From: a virus | IMG/VR virus record: IMGVR_UViG_3300013126_000014 | Span: 53,788 to 117,787 of that record | Direction: 5' to 3' (one strand) | Length of the DNA: 64,000 nucleotides | In this document: positions 34,882-56,907 of the stretch, in pieces | Layout: each line of letters starts with the position of its first letter | Position numbering within the stretch: the first letter of the stretch is position 1 | Notes under the pieces: model-generated | The model's input: only the letters and a program-made list of their open reading frames with translations | Databases searched by the model: none | Told to the model about the DNA's origin: nothing | Made by a program: the position numbers and the translations under genes

Positions 34882-35717
34882 AACAGCAAGGGTTTCTAAC
34901 CATAGCACAGAATAACGATACTACAGATTATCTGCGACTTGCTTACGCACAGGCGTTAAGCATTAAATTAACTATGCCTGGCAGTAAGTATGCTGTTCTA
35001 GTTGATGCCGTAACTATGTCTCAAGTAACTAACAAACATCGCAAGATATTTGATTACGTAATTGAACTACCTATAGACGATGCTGTTGATCAGCAGTGGA
35101 AATTGGCCAATGAATGGCAGGCCTGTGCTCTGACACCATTTAAAGAAACTATTAAACTTGAAAGTGATATACTGTTTACACGTAGCATCGAACATTGGTG
35201 GACTATATTCCGTTTAAGAAATATTGTAATTAGTTTAGGATGCAAAGATTTTCAAGGCAATCCTGCTGCTAGTAGAAATTATCGTAAGGTGTTTGACGAT
35301 AATAATCTACCAGATGTATACACAGGATTAATGTATTTTAGATACAGTAGTGAAGCATATGAATTTTTTGAAATAGTTAAAGCCTGTTTTCGACATTGGG
35401 ATATAGTGTCAGCACAGTTGAAGAACTATAGAGACACACAACCAACCACGGATCTAGTTTATGCTGTAGCTGCAAATCGCATGGGTTTGGAAACTTGTAC
35501 GTTGCCCAGCTGTGATTTTATTAACTTTACGCATATGAAAAACTCAATCAACCTCTGGCCAGAATCTATTCCGTGGTCTGAAATAGTGTTAACAGAAATT
35601 GATAGCCCAATGTTGCGTGTGAATAATACTAATCAATATTACCCATTTCACTATCAGGATAAGGCTTGGATCACAGATGAATTAATAGAGAGATATGAAA
35701 ATGAGCTCAGAATCTGA
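34869..35717 (+). CDS. Glycosyltransferase-like protein, paralogue of the preceding gene
   Basis: A 282-residue GT-A-like protein. It shares with its neighbour the DTTDYLRLAYAQAL start, the SKYAVLVDAVT strand and the acidic motif, which here is E98-S-D100 in KLESDILFTRS. ExD can replace DxD in some families, so activity is plausible but the change is notable. The C-terminal half is helical with aromatic patches (WDIVSAQLKNYRDTQPTTDL). It overlaps the previous gene by 13 bases and the next by 17. The two proteins might act as a pair on one acceptor. Confidence 0.6.
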   Translation: MSKLEQQGFLTIAQNNDTTDYLRLAYAQALSIKLTMPGSKYAVLVDAVTMSQVTNKHRKIFDYVIELPIDDAVDQQWKLANEWQACALTPFKETIKLESDILFTRSIEHWWTIFRLRNIVISLGCKDFQGNPAASRNYRKVFDDNNLPDVYTGLMYFRYSSEAYEFFEIVKACFRHWDIVSAQLKNYRDTQPTTDLVYAVAANRMGLETCTLPSCDFINFTHMKNSINLWPESIPWSEIVLTEIDSPMLRVNNTNQYYPFHYQDKAWITDELIERYENELRI

Positions 35718-36054
35718 ATTTTTGGCAGCACTACTGGCATTGCAACCTATAGTCGAAGAACCTATAGAATATAGAATTTATTATAATGAAAATGGGCGGA
35801 TAACTCAATGCAGCTTGCGAGGGCATCCTAAAGACGGTAACTATCTAGTCGTTACCGCTGAAGAGTATAACAACTATTTTCGCTATACTGTAGTAGAAGG
35901 TAGGCTGAAAAGAATTGACGTCGAGCATAACTTTCATGTAAAATTAACAAAGGCAGATTGCGGATATAAAGTAGTTAAAAATCACGCCGGTATCTTAATT
36001 GAACCAAATGAAACCTATAAGTATATAGAATATTATGACAACAGAAATAATTGA
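35701..36054 (+). CDS. Small hypothetical protein of the accessory operon
   Basis: A 117-residue acidic, beta-rich protein (EYRIYYNENGRITQCSL, GNYLVVTAEEYNNYFRYTVV, VEHNFHVKLTKADCGYKVV). No motif is recognised. I chose ATG 35701 over the ATG at 35695, which adds two residues; both lie inside the preceding gene. It overlaps the following glycosyltransferase-like gene by 20 bases. Its place between two sugar-transfer-like genes suggests a partner or an acceptor-binding protein, but that is only context. Confidence 0.55.
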   Translation: MSSESEFLAALLALQPIVEEPIEYRIYYNENGRITQCSLRGHPKDGNYLVVTAEEYNNYFRYTVVEGRLKRIDVEHNFHVKLTKADCGYKVVKNHAGILIEPNETYKYIEYYDNRNN

Positions 36055-36931
36055 CGTAGCAGATTTAGATTGTATATATCTGAGTTACGATGAACCTAAA
36101 AAAGAAGAGTTCTGGGTGCAAATACAAAATATTGTACCTTGGGCAAAACGTATAGACGGAGTTAAAGGAAGTGATAGAGCACACAAAGCTGCTGCTTCGG
36201 CAAGCGACACTGAGCGGTTTATTCTTATTGATGGGGACAATATTCCTGATCCTAACTTTTTTAATTTGCAGCTTGGTCTTAATAGCACTAACCGTGACTG
36301 TGTGTTTCGTTGGCGTGCAAAGAACGCGATCAATGGTCTACAGTATGGCAATGGCGGGTTGAGCTGCTGGACCCGTGCATTTGTACAGACTATGCAGACA
36401 CACGAAGCTAGTGATGGATCAGCTGCAAATGATGTAGAGTTTTGTTTCTACCCAAACTATTGGGCCATGCATGACTGCTATTCAACAACCTATCCCGACC
36501 AAAGTCCATTTCAGGCATGGCGGGCAGGTTTCCGCGAAGGTGTTAAGATGTGTTTAGATCGTGGAACAAGACCTAATTTATCAGAGTTTGAACAACGTGT
36601 ACACAGTCGCAACTATGATCATTTATGTATTTGGCAGACCGTGGGTGCAGATGTTGAGAATGGCTTTTGGGCTATATATGGCGCACGTCTTGGGACGTAT
36701 ATGACAATGTTAGAAGATTGGGATTATCGTAAAGTGCAAGACTTTGATGCGCTTGCATCGCTGTGGAATGTGTACAATAATGCACAACCTGAGCACTGTA
36801 CTAATATTGGCAACGAACTGCGAAACAAATTGGGTTTGCCTATAGTAGATATGGACCCAGAAGAAAGTAAATTTTTTAAACACCATTACAAGAGTAATTT
36901 CCGTAATCGAGGAATAATGACACGTGAGTAA
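36035..36931 (+). CDS. Glycosyltransferase-like protein with DGD motif
   Basis: A 298-residue protein with a GT-A-like core: KGSDRAHKAAASASDTERFI leads into LIDGDNIPDPNF, where D66-G-D68 is a good DxD metal motif. Then come WRAKNAINGLQYGNGGLSC and, later, FQAWRAGFREGVKMCLDRG. These same blocks recur in the C-terminal half of the protein at 53551-54876, so the two are paralogues; this one keeps the DGD. The family is related to those with a QYGNGG loop in phage surface-sugar clusters. It overlaps the radical SAM gene that follows by 8 bases. Confidence 0.62.
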   Translation: MTTEIIDVADLDCIYLSYDEPKKEEFWVQIQNIVPWAKRIDGVKGSDRAHKAAASASDTERFILIDGDNIPDPNFFNLQLGLNSTNRDCVFRWRAKNAINGLQYGNGGLSCWTRAFVQTMQTHEASDGSAANDVEFCFYPNYWAMHDCYSTTYPDQSPFQAWRAGFREGVKMCLDRGTRPNLSEFEQRVHSRNYDHLCIWQTVGADVENGFWAIYGARLGTYMTMLEDWDYRKVQDFDALASLWNVYNNAQPEHCTNIGNELRNKLGLPIVDMDPEESKFFKHHYKSNFRNRGIMTRE

Positions 36932-38324
36932 AAGCGTGTTTATGTCGGCAGCAGAACAAATGAAGGACCAGTTAGGACCGGCACTCTGCCTGGCCAAGTG
37001 GCAACAAGTTAGTCTACATTTGGGCACCGGTATGACTAATAGTTGTTACCATCCACCGTTGCATGAAATTGATCCTACTCCTTTACTAGCCAATCCTAGT
37101 GCGTTACATAATACATCTTACAAAAAATCTCAACGTATTATTATGTTAAAGCAAGAACGCCCGGGGGAATGCAGTTATTGCTGGAGTGCAGAAGACAACG
37201 GGCACTTGAGTGATCGACACTATCGCAGCGGTGAGCCATGGGCCGCAGAACACTTTGACACGATTGTAAACAGCCAAGGCAACGAAGATGTTACACCAAG
37301 TTATGTTGAAGTAAACTTTAGTAATGTATGCAACCTTGCGTGTTCGTATTGTAGTCCGCAGTATTCTACAGAATGGGCAAAGGATGTAGAACGTTGGGGC
37401 GCATATCCTACGAGCAATAAACATAATGATCCGGTTTACTTCCAAGGTCGTCGCAAATCCATTCCGAATCGTGAACACAACCCATATTTAGAAGCATTTT
37501 GGCGTTGGTGGCCCGAATTATATCCTAAATTAAAACACTTCCGTATGACCGGCGGTGAACCTCTTATGGATAAAAACACACACCGCGTGTTTGATTACAT
37601 TCTAAACAGTTTACCAAACAAAGAGCTACATTTAGATGTTACTAGTAACTTTAGTGTAGTTCCTGAGCTGTTTAACCCTTACTTAGAAAAAGTCAAACAA
37701 TTATGTGAAGGTGATTATGTTGAACATTTTATGCAGTATGTAAGTTTAGACAGTGGCGACCCGATGCAGGCCAGTTATATTCGCAGAGGTATGGGCAATC
37801 ATCGCGTAAACACATACGTCCATCGTTACTTAACACAGATACCTAACCGTAACAGTTTAACCTACATTATTACAATGAGCAACTTAAACATTTTAGGGTT
37901 AAAACGCTTACTTGAGCATATATTAGAATTACGCCAGCTACACAGTCACACCTATCAACGTGTTTGGTTTGATACACCGTTGTTACGTAGCCCAACATGG
38001 CAAAGTTTACAAATACTCCCACAAAGTTATTGGGAGATATTGGAAGATAGTGTTGTTTTTATGAAACAAAATCAGATGTCCGAAGAAAGTTTTGTAGGAT
38101 TTAAAGACTACGAAATACAGCGCATGGAACGTAACCTAGCATGGATGCGTCAAGGACGAGAGTTGGAACCCACATATATAGAACAACAACGGGCTGACTT
38201 TTACCGTTTCTTTAGTGAATATGATAAACGCAGCGAAACACAGGGAATAACAAGTTTCTTAGAAACTTTTCCTGAGATGAAAGATTTTTGGCAAGAGTGC
38301 AAATGGCATGCAGAAAATTCCTAA
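36924..38324 (+). CDS. Radical SAM protein with N-terminal auxiliary cysteine domain (subfamily CxAKW)
   Basis: A 466-residue radical SAM enzyme. The core motif C136, C140, C143 (NVCNLACSYC) and FRMTGGEPLM are unmistakable. Before the core lies a 100-residue domain with C22 (CLAKW), C41 (SCYHPP), C83 and C86 (ECSYCW, followed by SAEDNG). This has the shape of a twitch/SPASM-type auxiliary Fe-S site, moved to the N-terminus. The start is GTG 36924, overlapping the previous stop by 8 bases. SPASM/twitch enzymes usually modify peptides or small molecules; the substrate is unknown. It is closely related to the enzyme encoded at 39414-40778. Confidence 0.85.
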   Translation: MSKSVFMSAAEQMKDQLGPALCLAKWQQVSLHLGTGMTNSCYHPPLHEIDPTPLLANPSALHNTSYKKSQRIIMLKQERPGECSYCWSAEDNGHLSDRHYRSGEPWAAEHFDTIVNSQGNEDVTPSYVEVNFSNVCNLACSYCSPQYSTEWAKDVERWGAYPTSNKHNDPVYFQGRRKSIPNREHNPYLEAFWRWWPELYPKLKHFRMTGGEPLMDKNTHRVFDYILNSLPNKELHLDVTSNFSVVPELFNPYLEKVKQLCEGDYVEHFMQYVSLDSGDPMQASYIRRGMGNHRVNTYVHRYLTQIPNRNSLTYIITMSNLNILGLKRLLEHILELRQLHSHTYQRVWFDTPLLRSPTWQSLQILPQSYWEILEDSVVFMKQNQMSEESFVGFKDYEIQRMERNLAWMRQGRELEPTYIEQQRADFYRFFSEYDKRSETQGITSFLETFPEMKDFWQECKWHAENS

Positions 38325-39441
38325 GACATTTTGTCCTGCCAAATGGGAAGAGATACATGTTAACTTTGGGTTTAATTATGTGTTTGCTTGCTGTAAAGCA
38401 ACACCGATCCGATTTGTTAACAACATCAATGAAGTACTTGGCCCACAACGGCAAAATTTACTAAATGATATACAGGATCCTAGTTGTAATTATTGCTGGT
38501 CGATGGAAAATCAAGGTCATGCGAGTCGCCGGCACGATTACCTGTCAAAGAACAACAACGATATTTCTATCTATAGGGAAAATAAATCTAAAACTAAGAT
38601 GGTGGAAATTAGTTTAGGGAACGAGTGTAATTTTCAATGCGGATATTGCAATCCTAAATTTAGTAGCCAATGGGAAAGTGATGTTAATTCAAAAATATAT
38701 CCAGTATTTACTGATAGATTTTTTTATGCGTTAGATGAAAAAAATAAAAATACAATCGTTGATACAGTAAATTGGTTGTCTGAGGTTGAAGATCTAGATA
38801 CGTTATCTATTGTTGGCGGCGAACCTTTATTGAATAAAAACTTTTTTAAGATAATTGAAAAAGTTAAATCAAATAAATTGGGATTTGCGACTAATTTATC
38901 TTGTAGCCAATTAAAAATAGATCAAGTATTAGAATTAGCAAATCATTACAGCGATATCAGCTTAAGTGTAAGCATAGATTCTACAGGCGAGCTAGCAGAA
39001 TTTACTCGTTACGGCATGAACTGGGATACTATGCGGGATAATTTGTTATACCTTGTGACTAACAGCCCTAAGAATGTAAAAATTAATTTATTATCTCTTA
39101 TGACAAGTTCTACCATAAGAGGACTCAAAGAGATGACTCTCTTTGTTGAAAGACTGTATAATATTAATAACAATCTTGTTTGGCAATTATTTGATTGCAG
39201 AGATCCAAAGATACATAGCATGTTAACGTTACCAACTGAGATGAAACCAGAAATACTTAAACAGTTGGATATAATAAACACAATGCCAAACACTGAATTT
39301 GCAGAATTGGTTCAAAATAGTATTATTAATAGCAAATTTAATAGAACTATGTATAAAGAATTACAGGAATTTACTAATGAATTTAGCCAACGTAAAAATA
39401 TAGAGGTACCAGAATGCCTAAAAGACCTCAAGAAACCTTAA
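38308..39441 (+). CDS. Radical SAM protein (subfamily CxAKW), short form
   Basis: A 377-residue member of the same subfamily as its two neighbours. N-terminal cysteines: C9 (FCPAKW), C28-C29, C60 and C63 (SCNYCW, then SMENQGHASRR). The radical SAM core is C107, C111, C114 (NECNFQCGYC) with the GGEP motif in LSIVGGEPLL. Base composition looks more AT-rich than in the flanking genes (many AAA, TTA and ATT codons), which may mean a different origin. It overlaps the genes on either side by 17 and 28 bases. Likely a sequential or partner reaction in one pathway. Confidence 0.84.
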   Translation: MQKIPKTFCPAKWEEIHVNFGFNYVFACCKATPIRFVNNINEVLGPQRQNLLNDIQDPSCNYCWSMENQGHASRRHDYLSKNNNDISIYRENKSKTKMVEISLGNECNFQCGYCNPKFSSQWESDVNSKIYPVFTDRFFYALDEKNKNTIVDTVNWLSEVEDLDTLSIVGGEPLLNKNFFKIIEKVKSNKLGFATNLSCSQLKIDQVLELANHYSDISLSVSIDSTGELAEFTRYGMNWDTMRDNLLYLVTNSPKNVKINLLSLMTSSTIRGLKEMTLFVERLYNINNNLVWQLFDCRDPKIHSMLTLPTEMKPEILKQLDIINTMPNTEFAELVQNSIINSKFNRTMYKELQEFTNEFSQRKNIEVPECLKDLKKP

Positions 39442-40778
39442 TAGAGTATAAAGAACGAGTAATTGATAGTAAGAGTGCTAGCTTCTGTGGTGCTAAGTGG
39501 TACAATGCTACTATCTGGTTGGGTAGCGGGCAGACTACTAGCTGTCACCATCCCTTGCCACATGCGATCAACGTACAAGAAATTACTTTTAATCCTAAGG
39601 CTATTCATAACACCAAGGAAAAGAAAGAACAGCGTCGTCAAATGCAAGTAGGTGAGCGACCAGGTGGGTGCGAATACTGCTGGAAACTAGAAGATGCACG
39701 TGCATCAAGTGATAGAATTTATAAAACAATTATCTACGATGATGTAGATTTAGACTTAGCATACAACACGGATCATAATGAAGACATCAATTTACAAACT
39801 TTGGAAATCGCATTCGACAGAACTTGTCAGTTTGCTTGTAGCTACTGTAACCCTGCTTTTAGCACTGCCTGGGTTAGAGATATTAAGCGCAATGGAGCCT
39901 ATGAACATCTCGTATCTGACGGACGCAATCACTTTACTCACCCTCATGATAGTAGTCAACTTTTTTCACCTGATGAGATTAACCCTTATGCTGAGGCGTT
40001 CTTTGCGTGGTGGGAATCAGACTTACACAAAACCTTAAAAGAATTACGCATCACAGGCGGCGAACCTTTAATGAGTCCGTACCTGTGGCGATTGATTGAT
40101 TGGTTTAAAGCAAATAGAGGCAAAAGCACTACAAGATTGGCAATTAACAGTAACCTAGGATTTGAACGTGAAAAACTTGAAAGATTATTGGAAGCATGTG
40201 AAGGCATTGAGCTTGACATTTATACAAGCAACGAATCATGGGGTCGCCATGCGGCTTATATACGCGATGGGTTGGATTGGAGTCAATGGGTTAATAATGT
40301 ACATTATCTCCTTGAGTCTAAACAGTTGCGTGGACTCCACGTTATGTGTACCATCAATGCCCTATGCTTATTCTCACTAACAGACTTGTTATGGGAAATT
40401 GTTGCACTAAAGAAAAAATACGGTAAAGATTCAATTAATTTTACCCTAAACATCTTACGCTTCCCAAGTTTTCAAAGCCCGCTGATCGTACCCATCGAGT
40501 TTAGACTAGAAGCTTGTCGCAAACTAAAACACTTGTTTGATAATACATATCAAATAGGCAATGCAGCATCTACAGATCAATTACATGAGTTTGAACGTGA
40601 ACATATTGTTAGATTAATAACATATCTCAAAGACGTAGATACGCCACATAGTGGAGCACTAAGTAAGGAAATCTTACAGCGCGACTTTAAAAACTTCTAT
40701 CAACAATACGACCAGCGTCGCGGTAAAGACTTTAAATATACTTTTCCAGAACTAAAAGATTGGTACGACACACTTTGA
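39414..40778 (+). CDS. Radical SAM protein (subfamily CxAKW)
   Basis: A 454-residue enzyme most like the one encoded at 36924-38324. N-terminal auxiliary cysteines are C25 (FCGAKW), C44 (SCHHPLPH), C86 and C89 (GCEYCW, KLEDAR). The core motif is C138, C142, C145 (RTCQFACSYC, then NPAFSTAW), with LRITGGEPLM. The paired His after C44 (CHH, against CYH in the paralogue) may be a non-Cys cluster ligand. The product ends with the KDFKYTFPELKDWYDTL pattern shared with the other paralogue (FLETFPEMKDFW). Same operon, overlapping both neighbours. Confidence 0.85.
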   Translation: MPKRPQETLIEYKERVIDSKSASFCGAKWYNATIWLGSGQTTSCHHPLPHAINVQEITFNPKAIHNTKEKKEQRRQMQVGERPGGCEYCWKLEDARASSDRIYKTIIYDDVDLDLAYNTDHNEDINLQTLEIAFDRTCQFACSYCNPAFSTAWVRDIKRNGAYEHLVSDGRNHFTHPHDSSQLFSPDEINPYAEAFFAWWESDLHKTLKELRITGGEPLMSPYLWRLIDWFKANRGKSTTRLAINSNLGFEREKLERLLEACEGIELDIYTSNESWGRHAAYIRDGLDWSQWVNNVHYLLESKQLRGLHVMCTINALCLFSLTDLLWEIVALKKKYGKDSINFTLNILRFPSFQSPLIVPIEFRLEACRKLKHLFDNTYQIGNAASTDQLHEFEREHIVRLITYLKDVDTPHSGALSKEILQRDFKNFYQQYDQRRGKDFKYTFPELKDWYDTL

Positions 40779-42085
40779 GCAAACAAGACGAGTATTACAA
40801 GAATCACAACTATCACACACGTAAACCAGTTTACATCAGTGAGGATGAACTACGAGCAGACCAGTTAGATCGACTGACTAAAAGTGATACGTTCTGCATG
40901 ATACCTTGGATTCACATGCACGCCTTTCCTGATGGACGTGCTTACCCTTGCTGCCTGAGTGATGACAAATATCCAATTGGTAACTTTAAACAAGATACTA
41001 TGGCTACTGTTTGGAATCAAACGGCATATAAACAGATGCGTGTCAACATGCTAAGTGAAAAGCACTGCAAAGAGTGTACTAAATGTTACGAGCAAGAAGC
41101 CGCAGGATTTATGAGTATGCGCAACAGTACCAATAAAAACTTTGGACATCATATTAACCTGGTTGATCAGACATTGGCAGACGGGTCACAGCCGGAGTTT
41201 AAATTGCGATACTACGACATACGTTTTAGTAACTTGTGTAACTTTACATGCCGCACCTGCGGCGGATGGTTTAGTTCGAGTTGGTACACAGAAGAAGAGG
41301 CACTATATGGAAAACGAAACTATCCTAAAGTGTTATTTGCCGGTCGCACTGAGTTAGACATGTGGGAGCAAATGGAGCCACATATTCCTTATTTAGAGCA
41401 AATTTACTTTGCCGGCGGCGAACCACTAATGATGGATGAACACTATCGTATTCTAAAAGAATTAGTCAAACGTGAAATGTTTGATGTTAAATTAATCTAC
41501 AACACAAACTTTAGCCGCTTACATTTAAAAGATGACAATGTGCTTGACTACTGGAAGTTGTTTAAGAATGTTAGTGTTGGCGCTAGTTTAGATGGTATGG
41601 ATGCAGTAGGTGAATATATACGCAAAGGCACTAAGTGGGATCAGATTGTTCGCAATCGTGAACAAATGCTGTTAGTGACACCCAACACTGACTTTTATGT
41701 TAGTTCAACAGTTAGTTTGTATAATGCTCTTCATGTGCACCACTTTCATCGTTATTGGGCAGATCGAGGATTAGTAAAACCACAAGACTGGAATATTAAT
41801 ATCCTGCAGGGTCCCAACCGTGATCGTATTGATGTATTACCTGCGGTGTACAAAGAATTAGTAAACGAACAAGTTACTGAACATATTAATTGGCTACAGC
41901 CGCAGGATCATTTAAAACGTGCTACTAGTGGCTATGAAGGTATGTTAAATTTTATGAATGCTACTGATAATAGTCATTTATTAAATGAGTTTTTCCGTGT
42001 TAATGACATACACGATAAGTATCGTAATGAATCATTTGAACAAGTATTTCTAGAATTAATAGATTTGAGATCCTATGCTACCTGA
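40775..42085 (+). CDS. Radical SAM protein with SPASM-like N-terminal domain (subfamily CxxPW)
   Basis: A protein of about 436 residues. N-terminal domain: C41 (CMIPWIHMHAFPDGRAYPCC), C59-C60, then C98, C101, C104 (CKECTKCYEQEAAG). The CxxPW...CC...CxxC-x3-E layout is that of a SPASM auxiliary cluster, here before the core rather than after it. Core: C155, C159, C162 (NLCNFTCRTC) and FAGGEPLM. There is no suitable ATG near the front; TTG 40775 overlaps the preceding TGA (TTGA), and TTG 40760 is also possible. Close relative of the products at 42075-43289 and 47725-49032. Confidence 0.85.
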   Translation: MSKQDEYYKNHNYHTRKPVYISEDELRADQLDRLTKSDTFCMIPWIHMHAFPDGRAYPCCLSDDKYPIGNFKQDTMATVWNQTAYKQMRVNMLSEKHCKECTKCYEQEAAGFMSMRNSTNKNFGHHINLVDQTLADGSQPEFKLRYYDIRFSNLCNFTCRTCGGWFSSSWYTEEEALYGKRNYPKVLFAGRTELDMWEQMEPHIPYLEQIYFAGGEPLMMDEHYRILKELVKREMFDVKLIYNTNFSRLHLKDDNVLDYWKLFKNVSVGASLDGMDAVGEYIRKGTKWDQIVRNREQMLLVTPNTDFYVSSTVSLYNALHVHHFHRYWADRGLVKPQDWNINILQGPNRDRIDVLPAVYKELVNEQVTEHINWLQPQDHLKRATSGYEGMLNFMNATDNSHLLNEFFRVNDIHDKYRNESFEQVFLELIDLRSYAT

Positions 42086-43289
42086 AAAAATTTGTATGCT
42101 ACCTTGGATTAGTATTGAAACTAGTCCTATAGGCACAGCTCGACCTTGTTGTCTTGCAATTGACGAGATAACCAAACCTGATGGTACTAAGTATAATCTC
42201 AGAGAAAATACCTTAGAAGAAATATATCACAGTGACTATATGCAGAGTCTTCGGCAAGAGTTTCTTACAGGCAACAAACCTAAAACTTGCCAACGTTGCT
42301 GGGACGAAGAATCTGCAGGTCGTACAAGTAAACGTATTAACAGTCGTATTAGATTGAAGGAATACTATGACGGCATCGATTGGAATAATCTTAACCCTGA
42401 TCAGTTGTGGTTTATTGATCTTAAGTTAGGCAATATTTGTAATCTAAAATGTCGTATTTGCGGGTCCTGGAGTAGTAGCAAGTGGGTTAACGAAGAAATA
42501 GATTATTCAGGAGGTAACCGAAAGGAGCATCTGGCTTATAAATTTCTTCAATTGGGTGCATGGCCTAGGGAAAGTCCTGCGTTTTGGGACAACTTACGCA
42601 CTCTGCTACCTGACATTAAATATTTTGAGTTTACCGGCGGTGAACCGTTTCTTATTCAACAACATTTTGATCTATTAGAGTATGCTGTTAATCATGGTTA
42701 CGCTGAGAACATTGAAATTCATTACAATACTAACGGTACCGTCTTTCCTGAGCAATATCATATATGGAGCCACTTTAAACATGTTGAGGTGGCATTCTCA
42801 ATTGACAACACTGGTGAGAGATTTGAATATGAAAGATATGGTGCTAAATGGGATGAAGTACAAGAAAACATTAAAAAATTTGAAGAGTTGCGCCTGGCAG
42901 TGCTTAAAGAGTTTAAATACAAAAAAATAACCAGCCAATTATGCACAACTGTAAATGTGCAGAATGTCTACTATTTGCCTGAAATTTGCGAGTGGGTTTT
43001 GACGCAGACGTTTGACCATGTGTATTTTAACATGCTGCACGAGCCTTGGTATATGAATATTGGAAAGATGACTAGCGCAGCTAAACAGTTGGTTATTAAC
43101 AAATTAAACACCGCTAAAATTGATCCTAAATATCGTATGGAGATCATGCGTATAGTTAAATTTATAGAAAATGGCGAAACAACAGATGGGAAAGAGTTTG
43201 TGGCGCGGATGAAATTGGCCGATGATTATAGAAAACAAAGTTTTTTAAATAGTCACCCCGAAGTTGCGTTAGCTATGGGTTATGAGTAA
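42075..43289 (+). CDS. Radical SAM protein with SPASM-like N-terminal domain (subfamily CxxPW)
   Basis: A 404-residue radical SAM enzyme. N-terminal cysteines are C7 (CMLPWISIETSPIG), C25-C26 (RPCCLA), C72 and C75 (CQRCWDEESAGRTSKR). The core motif is C122, C126, C129 (NICNLKCRIC) with FTGGEPFL. The segment LEEIYHSDYMQSLRQEFLTG is the linker seen in SPASM-type domains between cluster ligands. It overlaps the previous gene by 11 bases and the next by 8. Of the three CxxPW enzymes it is the shortest, with almost no leader before C7. The substrate is unknown; a peptide, nucleotide or sugar acceptor cannot be distinguished. Confidence 0.86.
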   Translation: MLPEKICMLPWISIETSPIGTARPCCLAIDEITKPDGTKYNLRENTLEEIYHSDYMQSLRQEFLTGNKPKTCQRCWDEESAGRTSKRINSRIRLKEYYDGIDWNNLNPDQLWFIDLKLGNICNLKCRICGSWSSSKWVNEEIDYSGGNRKEHLAYKFLQLGAWPRESPAFWDNLRTLLPDIKYFEFTGGEPFLIQQHFDLLEYAVNHGYAENIEIHYNTNGTVFPEQYHIWSHFKHVEVAFSIDNTGERFEYERYGAKWDEVQENIKKFEELRLAVLKEFKYKKITSQLCTTVNVQNVYYLPEICEWVLTQTFDHVYFNMLHEPWYMNIGKMTSAAKQLVINKLNTAKIDPKYRMEIMRIVKFIENGETTDGKEFVARMKLADDYRKQSFLNSHPEVALAMGYE

Positions 43290-44214
43290 ACTAATTTTAA
43301 AAGCCGACAGCTGGTGCACAGCTAATGCATTTTATCTTGAAGAATTGTATAGATCAAAATTTGAGGTGACTACAGATCTTAACAGTGATGGTATCATATA
43401 CGCAGACTGGAAAGATTATAAATGGGCAGTTGAATTAAATCGTCCGGGTATAATTGATCATCTATGGGATCCTATGGAGCAGGATCCGCAGATAAAAGAT
43501 AATGAAAACTTAAAAGTTCTGCGCAGCGACGGGTGGTTTGATTTAGTCAATGAACCACTGTGGTATACCGCATTGGGGTTAGATGAATTCACTGCATCGT
43601 GTGAAAATACTAAAACATTTTTAATGTTGATGAATATTAAAAAACCCCATCGAGACCAAATATGGAATAGTATCAGACCTTATCTAAACAATGCAATATA
43701 CAGTTATCATGGACGAGGTATTCCAGTCACAGGCAGTATTGATATTGATGTTGGTATTGGCAATTGGCAACGTCACGTTAATCCGGATTGGTACAATTTA
43801 ACAAAATTTAGTTTAGTAGTAGAAAGTCAATTACTTAAACACAATGACAATACTCCAGTGGATCCTAGTGAAAAATCTCTTAAACCGTTTGCATTTAAAC
43901 ACCCTATGATAGTTTGGGGCCCCCCTTTGACATTGTCTTGGTTGCGGTCGTGGGGTTTTGAAACATTTGATAATTGTATCGACGAAAGGTATGACCTAGA
44001 GTTTGACAATGCTAAACGACTGTCGATGATAATAGAGGAAGTAAAAAGATTAATTAACACCCCAAAGGATTACTTCAACACCGCGGAAACACGCCGCAGA
44101 TTTGATATAAATTACAATAGGTTTTATAACTTAGATTGGGCACGCCAACAACTAGAAGAAAGAGTTTTTGTAGTCATAAAAGAACACGGAGCAAAGTATG
44201 GTAAATGTTTTTGA
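43282..44214 (+). CDS. Putative glycosyltransferase, fucosyltransferase-10-like C-terminal segment
   Basis: A 310-residue protein. The C-terminal third carries SEKSLKPFAFKHPMIVWG (about 196-213), then LSWLRSWGFETFDNCIDE. This resembles the donor-binding part of GT10/GT-B-type transferases found in phages and giant viruses (EKxxKPxxxxxPxIVxG...LRxxGFxTFD). The N-terminal two-thirds is unfamiliar and Trp/Asp-rich. It lies between a radical SAM and an oxygenase gene with overlaps of 8 and 17 bases. If the assignment is right, it transfers a sugar that may first be changed by the neighbouring enzymes. Confidence 0.5.
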   Translation: MSKLILKADSWCTANAFYLEELYRSKFEVTTDLNSDGIIYADWKDYKWAVELNRPGIIDHLWDPMEQDPQIKDNENLKVLRSDGWFDLVNEPLWYTALGLDEFTASCENTKTFLMLMNIKKPHRDQIWNSIRPYLNNAIYSYHGRGIPVTGSIDIDVGIGNWQRHVNPDWYNLTKFSLVVESQLLKHNDNTPVDPSEKSLKPFAFKHPMIVWGPPLTLSWLRSWGFETFDNCIDERYDLEFDNAKRLSMIIEEVKRLINTPKDYFNTAETRRRFDINYNRFYNLDWARQQLEERVFVVIKEHGAKYGKCF

Positions 44215-44980
44215 TAATGTAATATCCCCTACTGAAATTTCGCAGTTGCTTGACTATTTTAACATAGTCGATGACAGAATTGATGCACGACCTGATGTAA
44301 CTAGTAAGCATCCGCAGTGGGGTGTTGACCATTGGCCTCAATTGATAGTAGAACGTATATTAGATCAAATTTTAGATAAAACATACTCAGTAGAAGAAGT
44401 GATTTTTAATCAATCTAAAATTAGTTTTGGTGTACATGCAGACAGTGGAAGTCTGAATCAGCGCATCTATAAAGCTATATTAATTCCATTGGAAATTACC
44501 AACGGTAGCGGAACTGTATTTTTTGACAACCATTGGCCGTATGCTAGTGCTAAGTTTACACGTCAAAAATTTGATCCTATGATTTATACTGTATTTGACA
44601 GTAACGACGATCCTGTTAGGATTAATCTATTAGAGTTTTTACTTGATAGAGATATTAATAAATTTCCAAATTATACAGATGAATATATATCTAATTTAAT
44701 CTCTACTAGAAAAAATAGTACAGGGTATTCCAAAACAGATATTAGGATAAATGATTACGACAAAATCATTGGATATAACCCTAATCAAAATTTTGATCAA
44801 GATATTCATAGACAATATATCAATCATGTTGATATCAATGATTTAACGGGTCTAAGTTTAGACAAGATTATTCCGTGGGTGCTTGGTAACGTTATTGTGT
44901 TTGATCGTACACAATTACATTGTGCAACGAGCGGCCATAAGTCTAAGACAGGAATAACAATTTTTACTAATCTAGTCTGA
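44198..44980 (+). CDS. 2-oxoglutarate/Fe(II)-dependent oxygenase-like protein
   Basis: A 260-residue protein with the facial-triad pattern of non-haem Fe(II) dioxygenases: H80-x-D82 in FGVHADSG and H241 in RTQLHCATSG, followed by HKSKTGITIF, where Lys250 could bind 2-oxoglutarate. The segment AILIPLEITNGSGTVFFDN is the expected double-stranded beta-helix part. The distance between the second Asp and the distal His is long (about 160 residues) because of a polar insert at 120-215. Such enzymes hydroxylate peptides, sugars or bases. It is the last gene of the plus-strand run and overlaps a convergent gene by 14 bases. Confidence 0.72.
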   Translation: MVNVFDNVISPTEISQLLDYFNIVDDRIDARPDVTSKHPQWGVDHWPQLIVERILDQILDKTYSVEEVIFNQSKISFGVHADSGSLNQRIYKAILIPLEITNGSGTVFFDNHWPYASAKFTRQKFDPMIYTVFDSNDDPVRINLLEFLLDRDINKFPNYTDEYISNLISTRKNSTGYSKTDIRINDYDKIIGYNPNQNFDQDIHRQYINHVDINDLTGLSLDKIIPWVLGNVIVFDRTQLHCATSGHKSKTGITIFTNLV

Positions 44981-46841
44981 TATCACATTTCCAATATCTA
45001 TTTTTTCGTTGGTAGTGATATGCTTTGTGAATAAATTCTGTGTCGTTAGTGATGCTTTTATCCCAATGGTCAATGGTGATTGAACTAGCATGGTATCCAG
45101 TGGCTAATTTTAAGATTATAGGATCAACAGTTATGTGTAATGGGTAACTAGTTCTCCAATCAACGCACATGTCTAAATTAAATTTAACCAATTCGTGAGA
45201 CATTTTAAAATTAAATTGACCGTCAATGAACTCAATTAGCTCGTTGGCTAATTGTTGCCGATTTCTATGAAAGACAATGCAACTAGCAGATTTATATTCC
45301 CAGTAAACTCCGTTGATGTAGGTCCCCCAAAAGCCGCCAGCTTCAAAAACTTGTTTAATACCTTGTTCAGTTATGTAATGTTGCTCCCAGAGTAGCCCTT
45401 GCTTACGGTTAGTAATATATTCTATTAACAAACGTACTACTTCGGTATGTGAAATATTTTCATGTTTAGTTAACGCTTCGATAATATAATGCCCCCAACC
45501 ATAGTAGTATAGTAGAATAGTCCAAAAACTTAACATGTGGCCTTGTATCATTTCATCAAAGTTAACAGTGTTTGTGGCATAGACTGCATCAACATTTTCT
45601 ACTATATAGTTCTCATCGTCGGTGATTTCTAACCAAAACACATCTAGCGGAACTTGCTTGTATTTTAGCTTATTCTTTTCTATGTAATCGGGCCGAGCCA
45701 TTGGCGCATTCTTTGTAATAACCAATGGGTGGACCATCAAAAAATCTTTTTGACCATAGTTAATCAACTGTTGAATACTGGCCTGTAAAGAATCTAAGGT
45801 CTCATGTGGCATAGGCCATATAAGTTCACTATAGGTAGGAATGTTTTCTTTCTGGTAATTAGTAAGATTATCTTTAATTACATCATTGGATAGATTGAAT
45901 CTTTTTGTTGCTACAAGTGTTTCTTCGTTAAGACTTTGCATAGAGAATGTAATACCCTTAAACAACTTTGTTCCGGCTTGTTTATCTAGCATAGCAATTT
46001 CAAAGATGCGTTCACTATGACTTTTGGCCCATGTAACGTCCCAAAATTTTGGATACCCATAGGTTAACTTAGTGTCAATCACATGTTTGGTTATTTCAAC
46101 ATCACGAGGCAGCATACCCCAATTACTATCACAGACAGCAACGTATTCTATTTTATTTTTGCCCATCCAAGTAATTTCTTCACGTATCCTATCCATGTCA
46201 AATTTGGTAATCTTGTTCCAGTAGTCTTCACCTATGTCACAGAATGTACACTGATACGGGCAGCCACGAAGTGTTTCAAATGTCACCTGCCATTGCACCT
46301 TGTCTGTGCGGCGTCTGATTATTTCGTTGTAGAATCCTGTTAGTATAGGACTTGGTATATCATCTACTTGTCTAAATCGAGTTAGTGGGGCAATTCTATT
46401 AGTTCTGGTAATAACGTGTGGTATATTATTTGGCCTAGGGTATTGTCTAAGAATTTCTCTAAACGCATATTCACCTTCGCCGAGTACTGCTATGTCAAAA
46501 TACGGGTTATTTGTAAAAAAATCTAAATCGTATTTGCTGACCTGCGGACCACCTACAACTATTAAACAATTGGGGTACTTAGTTTTAATAGCTTTGGCTA
46601 GCTCAATATTGTATTCCCAGGTCCATACATAACAACTTAGTGCTACCAACTTAGGGGTGTTAAGGCTGTTAACAACTTGTTTAATTGGTAGTTTTTCGTA
46701 TATAACATCTTTTAGTTCCCAATTTTGAGTAATTTCTAAGTCTTGCTGAGCATATGCCCATAGGTACCCTACCGCTAAAGGCAAAAATTTATTTGGCCCA
46801 TAACTATCAGCGACTTGAACTAGGTAAAGATTGTTTTTCAT
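44967..46841 (-). CDS. B12-binding-domain radical SAM protein
   Basis: A 624-residue enzyme with an N-terminal cobalamin-binding-like Rossmann domain (PLAVGYLWAY near 21-30, VVGGPQVSKYD at 95-105, VLGEGEYAFREIL at 119-131) and a radical SAM domain with C194, C198, C201 in RGCPYQCTFC. This is the standard order of B12-dependent radical SAM methylases and related enzymes. The C-terminal 200 residues hold a further helical domain rich in Trp and Tyr. It is on the minus strand, convergent with the oxygenase gene, and its start overlaps the stop of the radical SAM gene at 46838 by 4 bases. The substrate is unknown. Confidence 0.85.
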   Translation of the reverse strand: MKNNLYLVQVADSYGPNKFLPLAVGYLWAYAQQDLEITQNWELKDVIYEKLPIKQVVNSLNTPKLVALSCYVWTWEYNIELAKAIKTKYPNCLIVVGGPQVSKYDLDFFTNNPYFDIAVLGEGEYAFREILRQYPRPNNIPHVITRTNRIAPLTRFRQVDDIPSPILTGFYNEIIRRRTDKVQWQVTFETLRGCPYQCTFCDIGEDYWNKITKFDMDRIREEITWMGKNKIEYVAVCDSNWGMLPRDVEITKHVIDTKLTYGYPKFWDVTWAKSHSERIFEIAMLDKQAGTKLFKGITFSMQSLNEETLVATKRFNLSNDVIKDNLTNYQKENIPTYSELIWPMPHETLDSLQASIQQLINYGQKDFLMVHPLVITKNAPMARPDYIEKNKLKYKQVPLDVFWLEITDDENYIVENVDAVYATNTVNFDEMIQGHMLSFWTILLYYYGWGHYIIEALTKHENISHTEVVRLLIEYITNRKQGLLWEQHYITEQGIKQVFEAGGFWGTYINGVYWEYKSASCIVFHRNRQQLANELIEFIDGQFNFKMSHELVKFNLDMCVDWRTSYPLHITVDPIILKLATGYHASSITIDHWDKSITNDTEFIHKAYHYQRKNRYWKCDIRLD

Positions 46842-47671
46842 TTAAATGTTACAGTTGCTAAATGATCCACGCTAGCAACTTCGGGGCACATTCTGCAGAT
46901 TCTGTGCGGCGATCCAAAGTTGTCAACGAAATTATTGATTTGTTCTATCGTAGAATCAAAGTTAATTGAACTATCACTTAGGTTAGTATACGGTTCCCAG
47001 GCAGTATTACAATTATTTCCTAGCTTGTCTAATAAGTTTGGTAGTAACCCGCTTGTACTACATTTATAAATTACCCCATTGTACAGTAATGGGCACTGGG
47101 TTTGGCAGCAGACACTAAATGCGCGACTAGGATCTGAATTGTGAGGTATAATATCAGGAAAACTGCCTTGGTAACTTTTTGTAAATCGGACAGGGCGATT
47201 TATTTGTAGTTTAAAACTGCCTGACGCCCATCTATTAATACCGTATTCTGTAACAGGAGTCCAAGAATAACGTTTAAATATTTTGTCAATGACATTGGTA
47301 ATTTTGTTGTCTTCTACATGTACAGTTATCTTAAGTACGGAATTACCAATGTCATTTAGTAAATCTACCACATCAAAATGTTTGTCTAATAGCAATCCGT
47401 TTGTGGTAAATCTTAATTGACTGTTGGGCATTAAGTCTCTGCACCCCCGTATCCATTCTCGTACTTCTGGATTGATCAGGGGTTCACCCCCTATTAAACC
47501 AAAATCAGGAATAGTGAGTTTTTCTAACCATTTGGCTAGATCATCTGCACCCTGCTCCCAAGGAACGTACCCGCTAAACTTTAAATCTGAATAATTTGTA
47601 CACCCAAGGCAACTTAGATTACAGACTTGAGTCAGCATTGTCTCTAAAAACGGTAGTGTTGCTGTAGTCAT
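46838..47671 (-). CDS. Radical SAM protein, short, with C-terminal cysteine cluster
   Basis: A 277-residue enzyme starting at ATG 47671 (a TTG at 47686 would add five residues). The core is at the very N-terminus: C17, C21, C24 (QVCNLSCLGC) and IGGEPLINPEV near 60-70. The C-terminal part has CCQTQCPLLYNGVIYKC and CRMC, which look like ligands of a SPASM-type auxiliary cluster in the usual C-terminal position. So it belongs to a different branch from the six enzymes with N-terminal clusters. It is co-transcribed with the B12-type radical SAM gene, divergent from the plus-strand radical SAM gene at 47725. Confidence 0.83.
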   Translation of the reverse strand: MTTATLPFLETMLTQVCNLSCLGCTNYSDLKFSGYVPWEQGADDLAKWLEKLTIPDFGLIGGEPLINPEVREWIRGCRDLMPNSQLRFTTNGLLLDKHFDVVDLLNDIGNSVLKITVHVEDNKITNVIDKIFKRYSWTPVTEYGINRWASGSFKLQINRPVRFTKSYQGSFPDIIPHNSDPSRAFSVCCQTQCPLLYNGVIYKCSTSGLLPNLLDKLGNNCNTAWEPYTNLSDSSINFDSTIEQINNFVDNFGSPHRICRMCPEVASVDHLATVTFK

Positions 47672-47724
47672 TGTAATATTTAACAAAAAAGTTAATACCT
47701 TAAATTTTTAATTAAATATCTAAT
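47672..47724. other. Divergent intergenic gap between two radical SAM genes
   Basis: This 53-base AT-rich gap must hold the start signals of both divergent units. I see no close match to TTGACA or TATAAT with correct spacing on either strand, and only TTAAATA-like stretches. Neither gene has a clear ribosome binding site. Confidence 0.4.
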
Positions 47725-49032
47725 ATGACGTTCAATTCAAAAAAACCAGACACGCTGTGTTTAGCGCCTTGGGTACACACTTATCTAAGTCCCCAAACTG
47801 AGCGCAGGATGTGCTGCGCTAGTCGAGAGCCTGCGCAGAACTTTAAACAGTATATTGATACTGAATCTGGCACAGGAAAATATATTCCCATTACCTTAGA
47901 TGAACACTGGAACAGCGAACATATGAAGAGTGTTCGACGGCGCATGATGGCTGGCGAGACTTTACCAGAGTGCGAGGTATGCAACGACAAGTTGCTCAAT
48001 ACAGCCGTTTACCGTAGTTATTTTGATAGTATGTTTGGTCATAAGTATGAGTATGTAATGCAGAATACTGGTGCTGATGGCAGTACTAGTGTTTTTCCAA
48101 TAAGTTGGGATTACCGTTTTAGTAATTTATGCAATTTCAAATGCCGCATGTGTGGTGATATGTTGAGCAGTGCTTGGGAGTCAGAACAACGCCAACATAA
48201 TATGATCAATTGGTCTAATCCAAAAAATAATTGGATGAGGCCCGAAGTCAAGAAACAAATTGAAGAATTCCAATCAACACAGATTGAACAAGAGTTCGCA
48301 CGTGCAGTCGAGAACCATCAAGTAGAAGAAGTATATTGGGTTGGCGGAGAACCCTTAATGTACGAACAACACTGGCGTTATATGAAACGTATAGTGGAAT
48401 TGGGCGATGGTAAAAATGTTTACGCAAGATACAATACAAATCTTAGTCGTGTCACTTATGGTGGCATCAACCTTTATTCCGATATTCTTGATAATCTACG
48501 TGACTGGCAAATTTGTGCAAGCCTCGACGGCACAGGACCAATTGGCGAGTATATTAGAACAGGACTTGACTACACTTCGTGGCTTGAGAATTTCAAGCAA
48601 GGAGTTAAAAAATCAACTCACCGACGTCAAATGCGAATTGACTTTACTCTCACACTTCCGGGAATGTTCGAAATCCAAAGAATTGCCCGCCTTGCTGAAG
48701 AGTTGGAAGTAGATGTCTTAGCTAAAGTGGTCTTCAGTTTCTCTCCAGACATAATTATGAGCCCGCTAGCATTGCCTAAACACATACTACATCCTTGGAT
48801 AGATGAGATACTAGAGGACTTGTTCAATCCTGCACTAAGAGATTTATTATTGCAGTTAAAAACACGACCTACGTTTAAAGAACAATGGCCTGATAATTAT
48901 TGCAGACCTCTTGCAGAAGGCAAGCAACGTGTGCTACAATTAGAAAGAATACGACAAGATAAAATTACATTAGAAGATATTGTCAGATTTAGAAAAGATG
49001 TTTATGCTTGGTACAGATCAATCCCAAATTAA
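47725..49032 (+). CDS. Radical SAM protein with SPASM-like N-terminal domain (subfamily CxxPW)
   Basis: A 435-residue enzyme related to the products at 40775-42085 and 42075-43289. N-terminal ligands: C12 (CLAPWVHTYLSPQTERRMCC), C30-C31, C83 and C86 (ECEVCNDKL). Core: C136, C140, C143 (NLCNFKCRMC) with WVGGEPLMYEQHW and YNTNLSRV. The YNTN-x-SR segment is shared with the product at 40775-42085 (YNTNFSRL), so these two are the closest pair. It opens the second plus-strand run. Its gene overlaps the unknown gene downstream by 35 bases, implying joint translation. Confidence 0.85.
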   Translation: MTFNSKKPDTLCLAPWVHTYLSPQTERRMCCASREPAQNFKQYIDTESGTGKYIPITLDEHWNSEHMKSVRRRMMAGETLPECEVCNDKLLNTAVYRSYFDSMFGHKYEYVMQNTGADGSTSVFPISWDYRFSNLCNFKCRMCGDMLSSAWESEQRQHNMINWSNPKNNWMRPEVKKQIEEFQSTQIEQEFARAVENHQVEEVYWVGGEPLMYEQHWRYMKRIVELGDGKNVYARYNTNLSRVTYGGINLYSDILDNLRDWQICASLDGTGPIGEYIRTGLDYTSWLENFKQGVKKSTHRRQMRIDFTLTLPGMFEIQRIARLAEELEVDVLAKVVFSFSPDIIMSPLALPKHILHPWIDEILEDLFNPALRDLLLQLKTRPTFKEQWPDNYCRPLAEGKQRVLQLERIRQDKITLEDIVRFRKDVYAWYRSIPN

Positions 49033-50176
49033 AGTTACATTACGCAATCCATTGGATCAAAACGATCTAATAGATTATTATATTGTCCCTAACAACACCC
49101 AATTGGCACGAGATTGGGTTTTAGCACTTAAAAAAATACTGCAAAACGGTAATCTATTAGAAAAAAATTACTGCTTTATGGGATTTCCAAAAACAGCTCG
49201 TACATTGGAGTATCTCTGTGACGAGTTAAATCGTAGTATAGAAACTATTAACAACTTTAATTTCACACAGCACGGATTGGAAAATTATATTATTGAAGAA
49301 TGGTTCCATCCTAACGTAGTAAGGTTCCCTCCGACTTACCCAATCGAAGGATCAATGATCGAACCTGGCACGTTAGATGGCAATCGCAGAGCTGAAATAG
49401 GTTTATATGCCAAGCACACAGTTCTTAATCAACTACATAATCATTTTGAAAAGCTTCAAGGAACAGTTGATCATCTGAGTCTATATTATAAAGTTGCAGA
49501 CTATGAAACAAAATACGCAATTCGCCAACTGAATATTATTTGTCATGAGATGGAAAGTTTAATTCTGAGTCAACGTAAGTTGGCTAGTACTCCCGAGTGG
49601 GTCAGACCTAGTCAGATTACTACGTTCCTGCACGCTGATCGTTACGAACTCAAAGATGAGCATAGGCAGGGATTCATTGACAATAGTTATGATCGAAAAT
49701 TTGGTCACGTTTATATGCACTGGACGCAAATTGGTAAAACACTTATGGAGGTATTCCGCGATGAGGGAGCGCCTAGGTTAACAGACACAGTTTGCGAAGC
49801 TATTACACATTTAAAATTTTACAGTGGAGAATTTGATGTAGAATGGGGTAAGAGTGTGACTAGAAAAGATAAGTTTCCTTGGGTAGAAAAACTAGCAACA
49901 GAGTTCACTGCTTGGTTGTTAGATAATAATTTAAATCCCAACGACCCTGCACTAAGTCTTGGGTATTTGCCCTTGGGACATGTCGATTTAAAAACTAGTT
50001 TTGGGACTGAAGACATGCTTGACATATGGGAGATATTAGGAAATCATTTAGATATCTATAGTATCGAAATAGACGGAGTCGGGCAGGTTTATAACTATTG
50101 TTGGACAGATTTGGATTACAAAAATAAACAGATTGATATGATGAGACCGGGATATGATTTTAGTAGCAGGCGGTGA
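48998..50176 (+). CDS. Unknown protein following a radical SAM gene
   Basis: A protein of about 392 residues whose start overlaps the preceding radical SAM gene. I chose ATG 48998, but ATG 49004 is equally good and TTG 48980 is possible. No family is recognised. The N-terminal 65 residues look like a small beta domain. The centre is helical and rich in His, Glu and Tyr (HTVLNQLHNHFEKLQGTVDH, then NIICHEMESLI), and a TTFLHADRYELKDEHRQGFI segment follows. Near the end come LGYLPLGHVDLKTSFGTED and IWEILGNHLDIYSIEIDGVG. The clustered His/Glu could bind metal; this is inference. It may be the partner or substrate carrier of the adjacent enzyme. Confidence 0.6.
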   Translation: MFMLGTDQSQIKVTLRNPLDQNDLIDYYIVPNNTQLARDWVLALKKILQNGNLLEKNYCFMGFPKTARTLEYLCDELNRSIETINNFNFTQHGLENYIIEEWFHPNVVRFPPTYPIEGSMIEPGTLDGNRRAEIGLYAKHTVLNQLHNHFEKLQGTVDHLSLYYKVADYETKYAIRQLNIICHEMESLILSQRKLASTPEWVRPSQITTFLHADRYELKDEHRQGFIDNSYDRKFGHVYMHWTQIGKTLMEVFRDEGAPRLTDTVCEAITHLKFYSGEFDVEWGKSVTRKDKFPWVEKLATEFTAWLLDNNLNPNDPALSLGYLPLGHVDLKTSFGTEDMLDIWEILGNHLDIYSIEIDGVGQVYNYCWTDLDYKNKQIDMMRPGYDFSSRR

Positions 50177-50975: not shown

Positions 50976-51042
50976 ATTAGAAATAAGATATAGAAAAAAA
51001 CTAAAAGAATTACGAAAAAGAGACCCTTTTATATACAAATGA
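50941..51042 (+). CDS. 33-residue basic micro-protein
   Basis: A frame from ATG 50941 to TGA 51042. It starts inside the end of one SGNH gene (35-base overlap) and ends in an ATGA overlap with the start of the next, so it fills the 63-base gap exactly. The product begins MNWLLKIINRVKLEIRYRKK and ends RKRDPFIYK: a short hydrophobic, then strongly basic amphipathic helix. The exact coupling at both ends argues for real translation. It might bind membranes or nucleic acid; no function is known to me. Confidence 0.62.
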   Translation: MNWLLKIINRVKLEIRYRKKLKELRKRDPFIYK

Positions 51043-56906: not shown

Positions 56907-56907
56907 G

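What the first reader, a model, noticed from the sequence alone, without database searches (positions are those of the whole stretch)
36924..49032. Six radical SAM paralogues with the auxiliary cluster placed before the core
Seen: the products at 36924, 38308, 39414, 40775, 42075 and 47725 each have a Cys-rich domain (Cys-x2-Lys/Pro-Trp ... Cys or CysCys ... CxxC-x-x-x-E/D) 40-75 residues before the CxxxCxxC core. Known: SPASM and twitch domains usually follow the core. Inference: this is a permuted SPASM/twitch architecture in two subfamilies (CxAKW and CxxPW). A phage locus with this many related radical SAM enzymes would be a new multi-step system.
Basis: partly seen in the sequence, partly recalled or inferred. 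Interest (0 to 1): 0.85.

Follow-up and report, generated by a model that had tools for sequence, protein, structure and literature searches.

The report
Five-enzyme radical SAM cassette in phages
A large uncultured water phage carries six related radical enzymes whose extra iron-sulphur domain sits at the front instead of the back; that layout is already a named family, but five of the six form a fixed set shared by dozens of phages and by relatives of predatory bacteria, probably to build an unusual sugar coat.

Summary
All six ORFs carry four invariant N-terminal cysteines (C-x18-C ... CxxC) 43-50 residues before CxxxCxxC. The N-terminal domain is homologous to the C-terminal twitch domain of BtrN: a profile of that domain alone hits only BtrN in the PDB, and its four cysteines fall on the four cysteines of BtrN's twitch stretch. 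So 'permuted twitch' is right, but not new: all six score above the cut-off of NCBIfam NF033640, 'N_Twi_rSAM'. Many-radical-SAM phages are also known (Campylobacter phages with 11-12; a TARA T4-like contig with 12).

What I could not find described is the unit. Five of the six (not 38308) form an ordered cassette next to tail-fibre genes, each in 54-60 of 60 phage loci, with glycosyltransferase-like genes and often a carbamoyltransferase. Starting instead from the neighbouring glycosyltransferase-like gene, 48 of 48 complete loci carry N-twitch enzymes. Each of the five phage clades has its own Bdellovibrionota sister; one Bacteriovoracaceae contig holds all five types.

Most likely function (inferred): sequential radical chemistry on a sugar or glycan that decorates the virion or the host surface. 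No substrate is known. No cultured phage searched carries the cassette.

The parts
36924..38324 (+). N-twitch radical SAM 1 (CxAKW type), core member; 466 aa, GTG start
   Evidence: NF033640 286.5 bits against cut-off 170; C22,C41,C83,C86 + C136,C140,C143 in 56/56 orthologues
38308..39441 (+). N-twitch radical SAM (CxAKW type), accessory member; orthologues in 5 of 60 loci (8 of 48 in the second set)
   Evidence: NF033640 190.7 bits
39414..40778 (+). N-twitch radical SAM 2 (CxAKW type), core member; AF2 model pLDDT 92.8, pTM 0.90
   Evidence: NF033640 289.9 bits
40760..42085 (+). N-twitch radical SAM 3 (CxxPW type), core member; AF2 model pLDDT 95.3, pTM 0.91; fused to the next gene in 4 phages
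   Evidence: NF033640 395.8 bits; PF13186 SPASM at residues 46-109, E 1.4e-12
42075..43289 (+). N-twitch radical SAM 4 (CxxPW type), core member
   Evidence: NF033640 343.5 bits; PF13186 at residues 7-76, E 7.4e-8; extra invariant C290 in 54/54
47725..49032 (+). N-twitch radical SAM 5 (CxxPW type), core member, the most conserved (median 74% identity)
   Evidence: NF033640 287.6 bits; extra invariant C264 in 53/53
36035..36931 (+). GT2-like (GT-A, DxD) partner gene, tightly linked to N-twitch genes in phages and bacteria
   Evidence: Profile match to GT2 proteins over the DxD region, prob 65.8%, E 5.7e-5; Pfam Glyco_tranf_2_3 below threshold; linkage
34066..34881 (+). Glycosyltransferase-like (GT-A, GT8-like) gene, in 50 of 60 loci
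   Evidence: Profile homology to 34869, hhalign prob 98.1%
34869..35717 (+). Glycosyltransferase-like (GT8, glycogenin-like) gene, in 50 of 60 loci
   Evidence: Profile hit to glycogenin-1, E 0.001
35695..36054 (+). Conserved small protein of unknown function, 119 aa, in 37 loci
33789..34097 (+). Conserved small protein of unknown function, 102 aa, in 49 loci
31284..32738 (+). Tail-fibre-like protein next to the cassette (phage tail/structural PHROGs; weak Peptidase_G2)
48980..50176 (+). Conserved protein of unknown function downstream of enzyme 5, in 51 loci
50154..50975 (+). SGNH-hydrolase-like protein (GDSF and C-terminal H motifs by eye; DUF6071 below threshold)
51039..51674 (+). DUF6071 protein with a weak GDSL hit
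51640..53139 (+). Carbamoyltransferase (Carbam_trans_N and _C; Nol-like PHROG), in 47 of 60 loci
54860..55984 (-). DegT/DnrJ/EryC1 sugar aminotransferase
   Evidence: PF01041 E 2.4e-82
55944..56939 (-). NAD-dependent nucleotide-sugar epimerase/dehydratase
   Evidence: PF01370 E 1.5e-44

Best explanation
Shown: the six are N-twitch radical SAM enzymes (NF033640). The twitch domain, which normally follows the radical SAM barrel, precedes it here. Five of the six form a conserved, ordered module with a GT2-like gene, two GT8-like genes and often a carbamoyltransferase, next to the tail-fibre genes. The same five types occur in Bdellovibrionota. Inferred: each enzyme cleaves SAM at the CxxxCxxC cluster and takes a hydrogen atom from its substrate; the four-cysteine auxiliary cluster, fully ligated as in BtrN, takes the electron from the substrate radical (an oxidation). 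The five act on successive positions or intermediates of one sugar or glycan, which the glycosyltransferases assemble or attach, and the carbamoyltransferase and SGNH-like protein modify further. The product most likely decorates the tail fibre or virion, or the surface of the infected host.
For: Architecture. Conserved five-gene order. Independent entry through the GT2-like gene: 48/48 complete loci carry N-twitch genes, 3-8 each. Entry through baseplate gp6: 12 of 17 contigs of at least 44 kb. Genes overlap by 8-28 nt as in one transcript. Fusions of enzymes 3 and 4 in L024, L036, L039, L041. Tree: five clades (97-100), each with its own Bdellovibrionota sister; L075 holds all five types. 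Bacterial linkage: the GT2-like family is in 9 of 129 genomes, all 9 among the 63 with N-twitch genes (P = 0.001), and 11 of 18 copies lie within 8 kb of one. It is also fused to another radical SAM protein in one Oligoflexia genome. Sugar context. Best PDB fold match of 39414 is the sugar-nucleoside enzyme BlsE.
Against: No substrate or product is known for any NF033640 member that I could find. The glycosyltransferase assignment of 36035 and 34066 rests on weak profile matches and a DxD motif. The best PDB fold match of 40760 is the peptide enzyme SkfB. Carbamoyltransferase and SGNH-like genes vary between phages. The Pfam tally of bacterial neighbours was partly hand-picked and has no background control. 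The genome of the L075 bacterium lacks the GT2-like gene altogether, so the five enzymes can exist without it.
Confidence: 0.5

Rival explanations
1. Protein or peptide modification: the five enzymes install crosslinks, epimers or other changes on a virion protein such as the neighbouring tail fibre, as SPASM/twitch enzymes do in RiPP pathways.
For: Several characterised SPASM/twitch enzymes act on peptides (PMC6231123); the cassette follows tail-fibre-like genes; SkfB, CteB and SuiB are among the best fold matches of 40760.
Against: No gap in the cassette can hold a precursor gene; no RiPP equivalog comes near its cut-off; the fixed partners are glycosyltransferase-like.
Confidence: 0.25
2. 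Host-surface remodelling: the module alters host LPS or capsule during infection to block superinfection, rather than decorating the virion.
For: This was proposed for the glycosyltransferases in the host-recognition cluster of pelagimyophages, where radical SAM cassettes also vary (PMC7029224); bacterial N-twitch genes sit near GT2 and polysaccharide genes.
Against: The cassette lies in the structural block after the baseplate and tail fibres, which suggests late expression; expression data are absent.
Confidence: 0.17
3. DNA hypermodification: the enzymes and glycosyltransferases modify phage DNA bases.
For: Glycosyltransferases and carbamoyltransferases are known from phage DNA modification (own knowledge); ThyA and dCMP deaminase genes lie nearby.
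Against: ThyA and dCMP deaminase look ordinary; no base hydroxylase was found among the genes examined; the module sits with tail genes, and its relatives are in bacterial chromosomes.
Confidence: 0.06

Closest known systems
NCBIfam NF033640 N_Twi_rSAM (twitch domain-containing radical SAM protein)
   Same: All six score 191-396 bits against a cut-off of 170, over nearly the full profile, twitch first and core second.
   Different: Nothing in architecture. The family name covers single proteins; the five-gene set and its partner genes are not part of it.
BtrN (2-deoxy-scyllo-inosamine dehydrogenase, butirosin pathway)
   Same: Twitch homology, E 3e-4 for the domain alone and 1e-7 for the full profile; the four cysteines coincide.
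   Different: BtrN carries the twitch after the core; here it is before. Substrate unknown here.
Campylobacter phages CP220 and CPt10 (11 and 12 radical SAM genes, an exchangeable five-gene module)
   Same: T4-like phage with a block of several radical SAM genes (PMC2853527).
   Different: The only CP220 stretch matched by 42075 covers the core region, residues 97-271, not the N-terminal domain.
Pelagimyophage host-recognition cluster; T4-like TARA contig with 12 radical SAM genes
   Same: Glycosyltransferases and radical SAM cassettes beside tail fibres (PMC7029224); many radical SAM genes (PMC5332604).
   Different: Those cassettes were described as variable; here the order and types of five enzymes are conserved over dozens of phages. 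Their protein families were not compared here.

Membership tests
NF033640 N_Twi_rSAM | Full-length profile score above the curated cut-off (170 bits) | tested here: met
   286.5, 190.7, 289.9, 395.8, 343.5, 287.6 bits
NF033640 N_Twi_rSAM | Twitch domain N-terminal to a CxxxCxxC core | tested here: met
Twitch domain of BtrN type | Four cysteines that together ligate one auxiliary cluster | tested here: met
   By alignment only: all four coincide with the four Cys of BtrN residues 167-239; BtrN's twitch gives four Cys ligands (PMC6231123). Cluster content not testable here
Twitch domain of BtrN type | Domain located C-terminal to the radical SAM core | tested here: not met
   It is N-terminal in all six
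SPASM domain, two-cluster form | Seven-cysteine motif CX9-15GX4C-gap-CX2CX5CX3C-gap-C | tested here: not met
   CX12GX4C and CX2C are present in the CxxPW type, but CX5CX3C and the last Cys are absent
SPASM homology (PF13186) | Pfam score above the gathering cut-off (21.5 bits) | tested here: inconclusive
   Met by 40760 (48.1) and 42075 (33.0); 47725 has 17.9; the three CxAKW proteins have no hit
RiPP maturation system | Precursor peptide gene near the maturase | tested here: inconclusive
   Genes overlap, leaving no room inside the cassette; the conserved small genes 33789 and 35695 cannot be excluded
Glycosyltransferase family 2 (gene 36035) | GT-A core with DxD-type motif, significant profile match | tested here: inconclusive
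   hhalign E 5.7e-5, prob 65.8%; Pfam below threshold; no PDB match

The most novel reading that the evidence does not exclude
A portable assembly line of five non-redundant N-twitch radical SAM enzymes, exchanged as a set between jumbo T4-like phages and Bdellovibrionota, that works with a dedicated GT2-like enzyme to build a previously unknown radical-modified glycan on the virion or cell surface.
Probability: 0.3. Interest if true: 0.8.

Novelty: new variant of a known kind. Interest (0 to 1): 0.56.

Why it matters
I found no characterised member of the N-twitch family. A fixed set of five orthologous enzymes, in the same order and tied to a glycosyltransferase-like gene in two unrelated kinds of genome, gives a defined system in which its chemistry could be worked out. 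If the product is a sugar, it would be a phage-encoded radical route to unusual glycans; if it is a protein, it would be multi-enzyme radical modification of a virion. It also links phages of open water to relatives of predatory bacteria, in which this family is strongly expanded.

Tried and rejected
Scan of genomes with the six-paralogue alignment: no stretch conserved enough; repeated with orthologues of 40760. Measuring cysteine distances in the AF2 models: coordinates are not released, so convergence rests on the BtrN alignment. Recent in-phage duplication as the origin of the six: rejected, each core clade is older than the phages sampled. Campylobacter-phage relation: only the core region matches. 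Cultured phages: best matches are Vibrio phages K566/K567 at about 24%, and the GT2-like gene finds nothing. Structure of the GT2-like gene by PDB profile: no credible match. Gene 48980: no function found. Literature on N_Twi_rSAM by name: none in the library. Amidinotransferase-like neighbours in bacteria (L113, L135, L334) were seen by eye, but the two that were scanned gave no Pfam hit, so they are not used.
Full report
Observation. The six ORFs exist and each carries the described cysteines. Only these six of the 77 window ORFs of at least 80 aa match the combined N-terminal plus core pattern, and none of 12,000 shuffles does. Between orthologues the seven cysteines are conserved in every sequence aligned at the position (54-56 per core gene), and they stay invariant across 50 sequences down to about 18-20% identity. 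The domain ends 43-50 residues before the core.

What the domain is. Pfam SPASM (PF13186) hits the N-terminus of 40760 and 42075 above its cut-off and 47725 below it. A profile of the family matches BtrN residues 183-257, its twitch, with profile positions 7-79. A profile of the N-terminal domain alone finds only BtrN in the whole PDB (E 3e-4), and its four cysteines fall exactly on the four cysteines of BtrN 167-239. BtrN's twitch fully ligates a [4Fe-4S] cluster with four cysteines (PMC6231123, PMC9012708). The motif CX12GX4C of the CxxPW type fits the SPASM consensus CX9-15GX4C, while the second half of SPASM is missing. The domain is therefore a one-cluster twitch placed before the core. 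AF2 models are confident (40760: pLDDT 95.3, pTM 0.91; 39414: 92.8, 0.90). PDB fold matches with low TM-scores (0.3-0.4) fit a shared radical SAM barrel with a differently ordered domain, but coordinates could not be inspected.

Is it new? No: NCBIfam NF033640, 'N_Twi_rSAM, twitch domain-containing radical SAM protein', is this architecture, and all six pass its cut-off. Predicted structures of uncultured phage proteins with the same overall fold are in BFVD (best TM 0.92). Phages with many radical SAM genes are also known (PMC2853527, 11-12 genes; PMC5332604, 12 genes; PMC7029224, cassettes at the host-recognition cluster).

The unit behind it. The window is part of a 117,787-base IMG/VR virus record with T4-like late genes (sigma factor, baseplate hub, baseplate wedge). 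Its gp6 is nearest to jumbo phages of the Atu_ph07 and 121Q/PBECO4 kind, below 40% identity. Sixty viral loci found with 40760 show one order: tail fibre, 32750, 33789, 34066, 34869, 35695, 36035, 36924, 39414, 40760, 42075, 47725, 48980, SGNH-like genes, carbamoyltransferase. The five radical SAM types are each present in 54-60 loci, at median identities of 50-74%. The sixth gene, 38308, is accessory (5 loci), as are 43282, 44198, 44967-46841 and 46838-47686. Enzymes 3 and 4 are fused in four phages. Starting from 36035 instead of a radical SAM gene, 48 of 48 loci with 10 kb downstream have 36924, 47 have 39414 and 40760, and all have at least three N-twitch genes; later genes fall off the end of the locus more often. 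Starting from baseplate gp6, 12 of 17 contigs of at least 44 kb have N-twitch genes above cut-off, mostly five or more, and several of the rest are fragments. No cultured phage in the collection has the cassette; Vibrio K566/K567 have three to four distant N-twitch places.

Relatives in bacteria. A genome scan finds single N-twitch genes in many Bacteroidota and clusters in Bdellovibrionota. In the tree each of the five phage types is one clade (SH-aLRT 97-100), and each groups with its own Bdellovibrionota sequences; the Bacteriovoracaceae contig L075 has eight N-twitch genes covering all five types. The five types therefore diverged before these phages, and the set is shared across the phage-bacterium boundary. 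The tree is a short search with SH-aLRT only and is rooted at the midpoint, so the direction of transfer is open. In the order of L075, 63 of 129 genomes have N-twitch genes above cut-off, often ten or more matches, against 0 of 14 control genomes.

The partner. The 36035 family has no Pfam or PDB match above threshold. A profile comparison with GT2 proteins aligns its ..AHKAAA..S....ILIDGDN.. segment with the GT2 DxD region (E 5.7e-5, prob 65.8%), so it is called GT2-like. In the 129 bacterial genomes it occurs in nine, all among the 63 with N-twitch genes (hypergeometric P 0.001), and 11 of 18 copies lie within 8 kb of a listed N-twitch gene (P about 1e-9 under a rough uniform model). The genomes are related, so these probabilities overstate the independent evidence. 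In the Oligoflexia genome of L070 the domain is fused to another radical SAM protein. The pairing is thus seen twice, in phages and in bacteria.

Mechanism. Shown: architecture, conservation, module, linkage. Inferred from established chemistry of the families: SAM cleavage at the CxxxCxxC cluster; a fully ligated low-potential auxiliary cluster acting as electron acceptor, as proposed for BtrN; net oxidation of the substrate. Inferred from context: the substrate is a sugar or glycan. Two GT8-like genes (34869 matches glycogenin, E 0.001; 34066 is its homologue), a carbamoyltransferase, a DegT aminotransferase and a nucleotide-sugar epimerase stand in the same region. Bacterial neighbours include GT2, epimerase, carbamoyltransferase and DegT genes (no background control). 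Whether the product sits on the virion or on the host is not decided by sequence; position beside the tail fibres favours the virion. Group-specific invariant cysteines outside the clusters (42075 C290, 47725 C264, 39414 C318) could be hydrogen donors, which is a guess.

Verdict. The conserved five-enzyme module with its GT2-like partner, shared with Bdellovibrionota, is the part worth following.

Noticed in passing
L075 6046-18042; genomes G001-G131: N-twitch radical SAM genes are strongly expanded in the order of Bacteriovoracaceae bacterium UBA6144: 63 of 129 genomes above cut-off, many with ten or more matches.
   Followed up: partly
L024 10016-12526, L036 9968-12511, L039 9992-12514, L041 10001-12538: Orthologues of 40760 and 42075 are fused into one protein of 837-848 aa in four phages.
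   Followed up: partly
L231 1480-3384 (same gene in L244 16389-18293): An Oligoflexia protein fuses another radical SAM protein, with a SPASM-like tail by eye, to the GT2-like domain of gene 36035.
   Followed up: partly
window 44967-46841 and 2356-3936: Two B12-type radical SAM genes: 44967-46841 matches the KedN5 family below cut-off (224 of 700 bits) and passes the B12-binding Pfam cut-off; 2356-3936 matches PhpK-type P-methyltransferases below cut-off and B12-binding only weakly.
   Followed up: no
window 43282-44214 and copies in 36 loci: A fast-evolving family (20-40% identity), often in several copies per locus and inserted between the core enzymes; motifs look like GT10 by eye, with no Pfam match.
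   Followed up: partly
window 15044-28012: A 4,322-aa virion structural protein (PHROG 10938) precedes the tail-fibre genes.
   Followed up: no
L113 11173-12258, L135 7502-8617, L334 7715-8785: Proteins that look like glycine amidinotransferases by eye (two scanned, no Pfam hit) lie next to bacterial N-twitch genes; Campylobacter phages CP220/CPt10 also pair radical SAM genes with a putative glycine amidinotransferase.
   Followed up: partly
L069 14019-18421 (Vibrio phage K566): An isolated jumbo Vibrio phage carries a small block of annotated radical SAM genes related to the N-twitch family at about 24% identity; with its close relative K567 it is the nearest match found among cultured phages.
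   Followed up: partly
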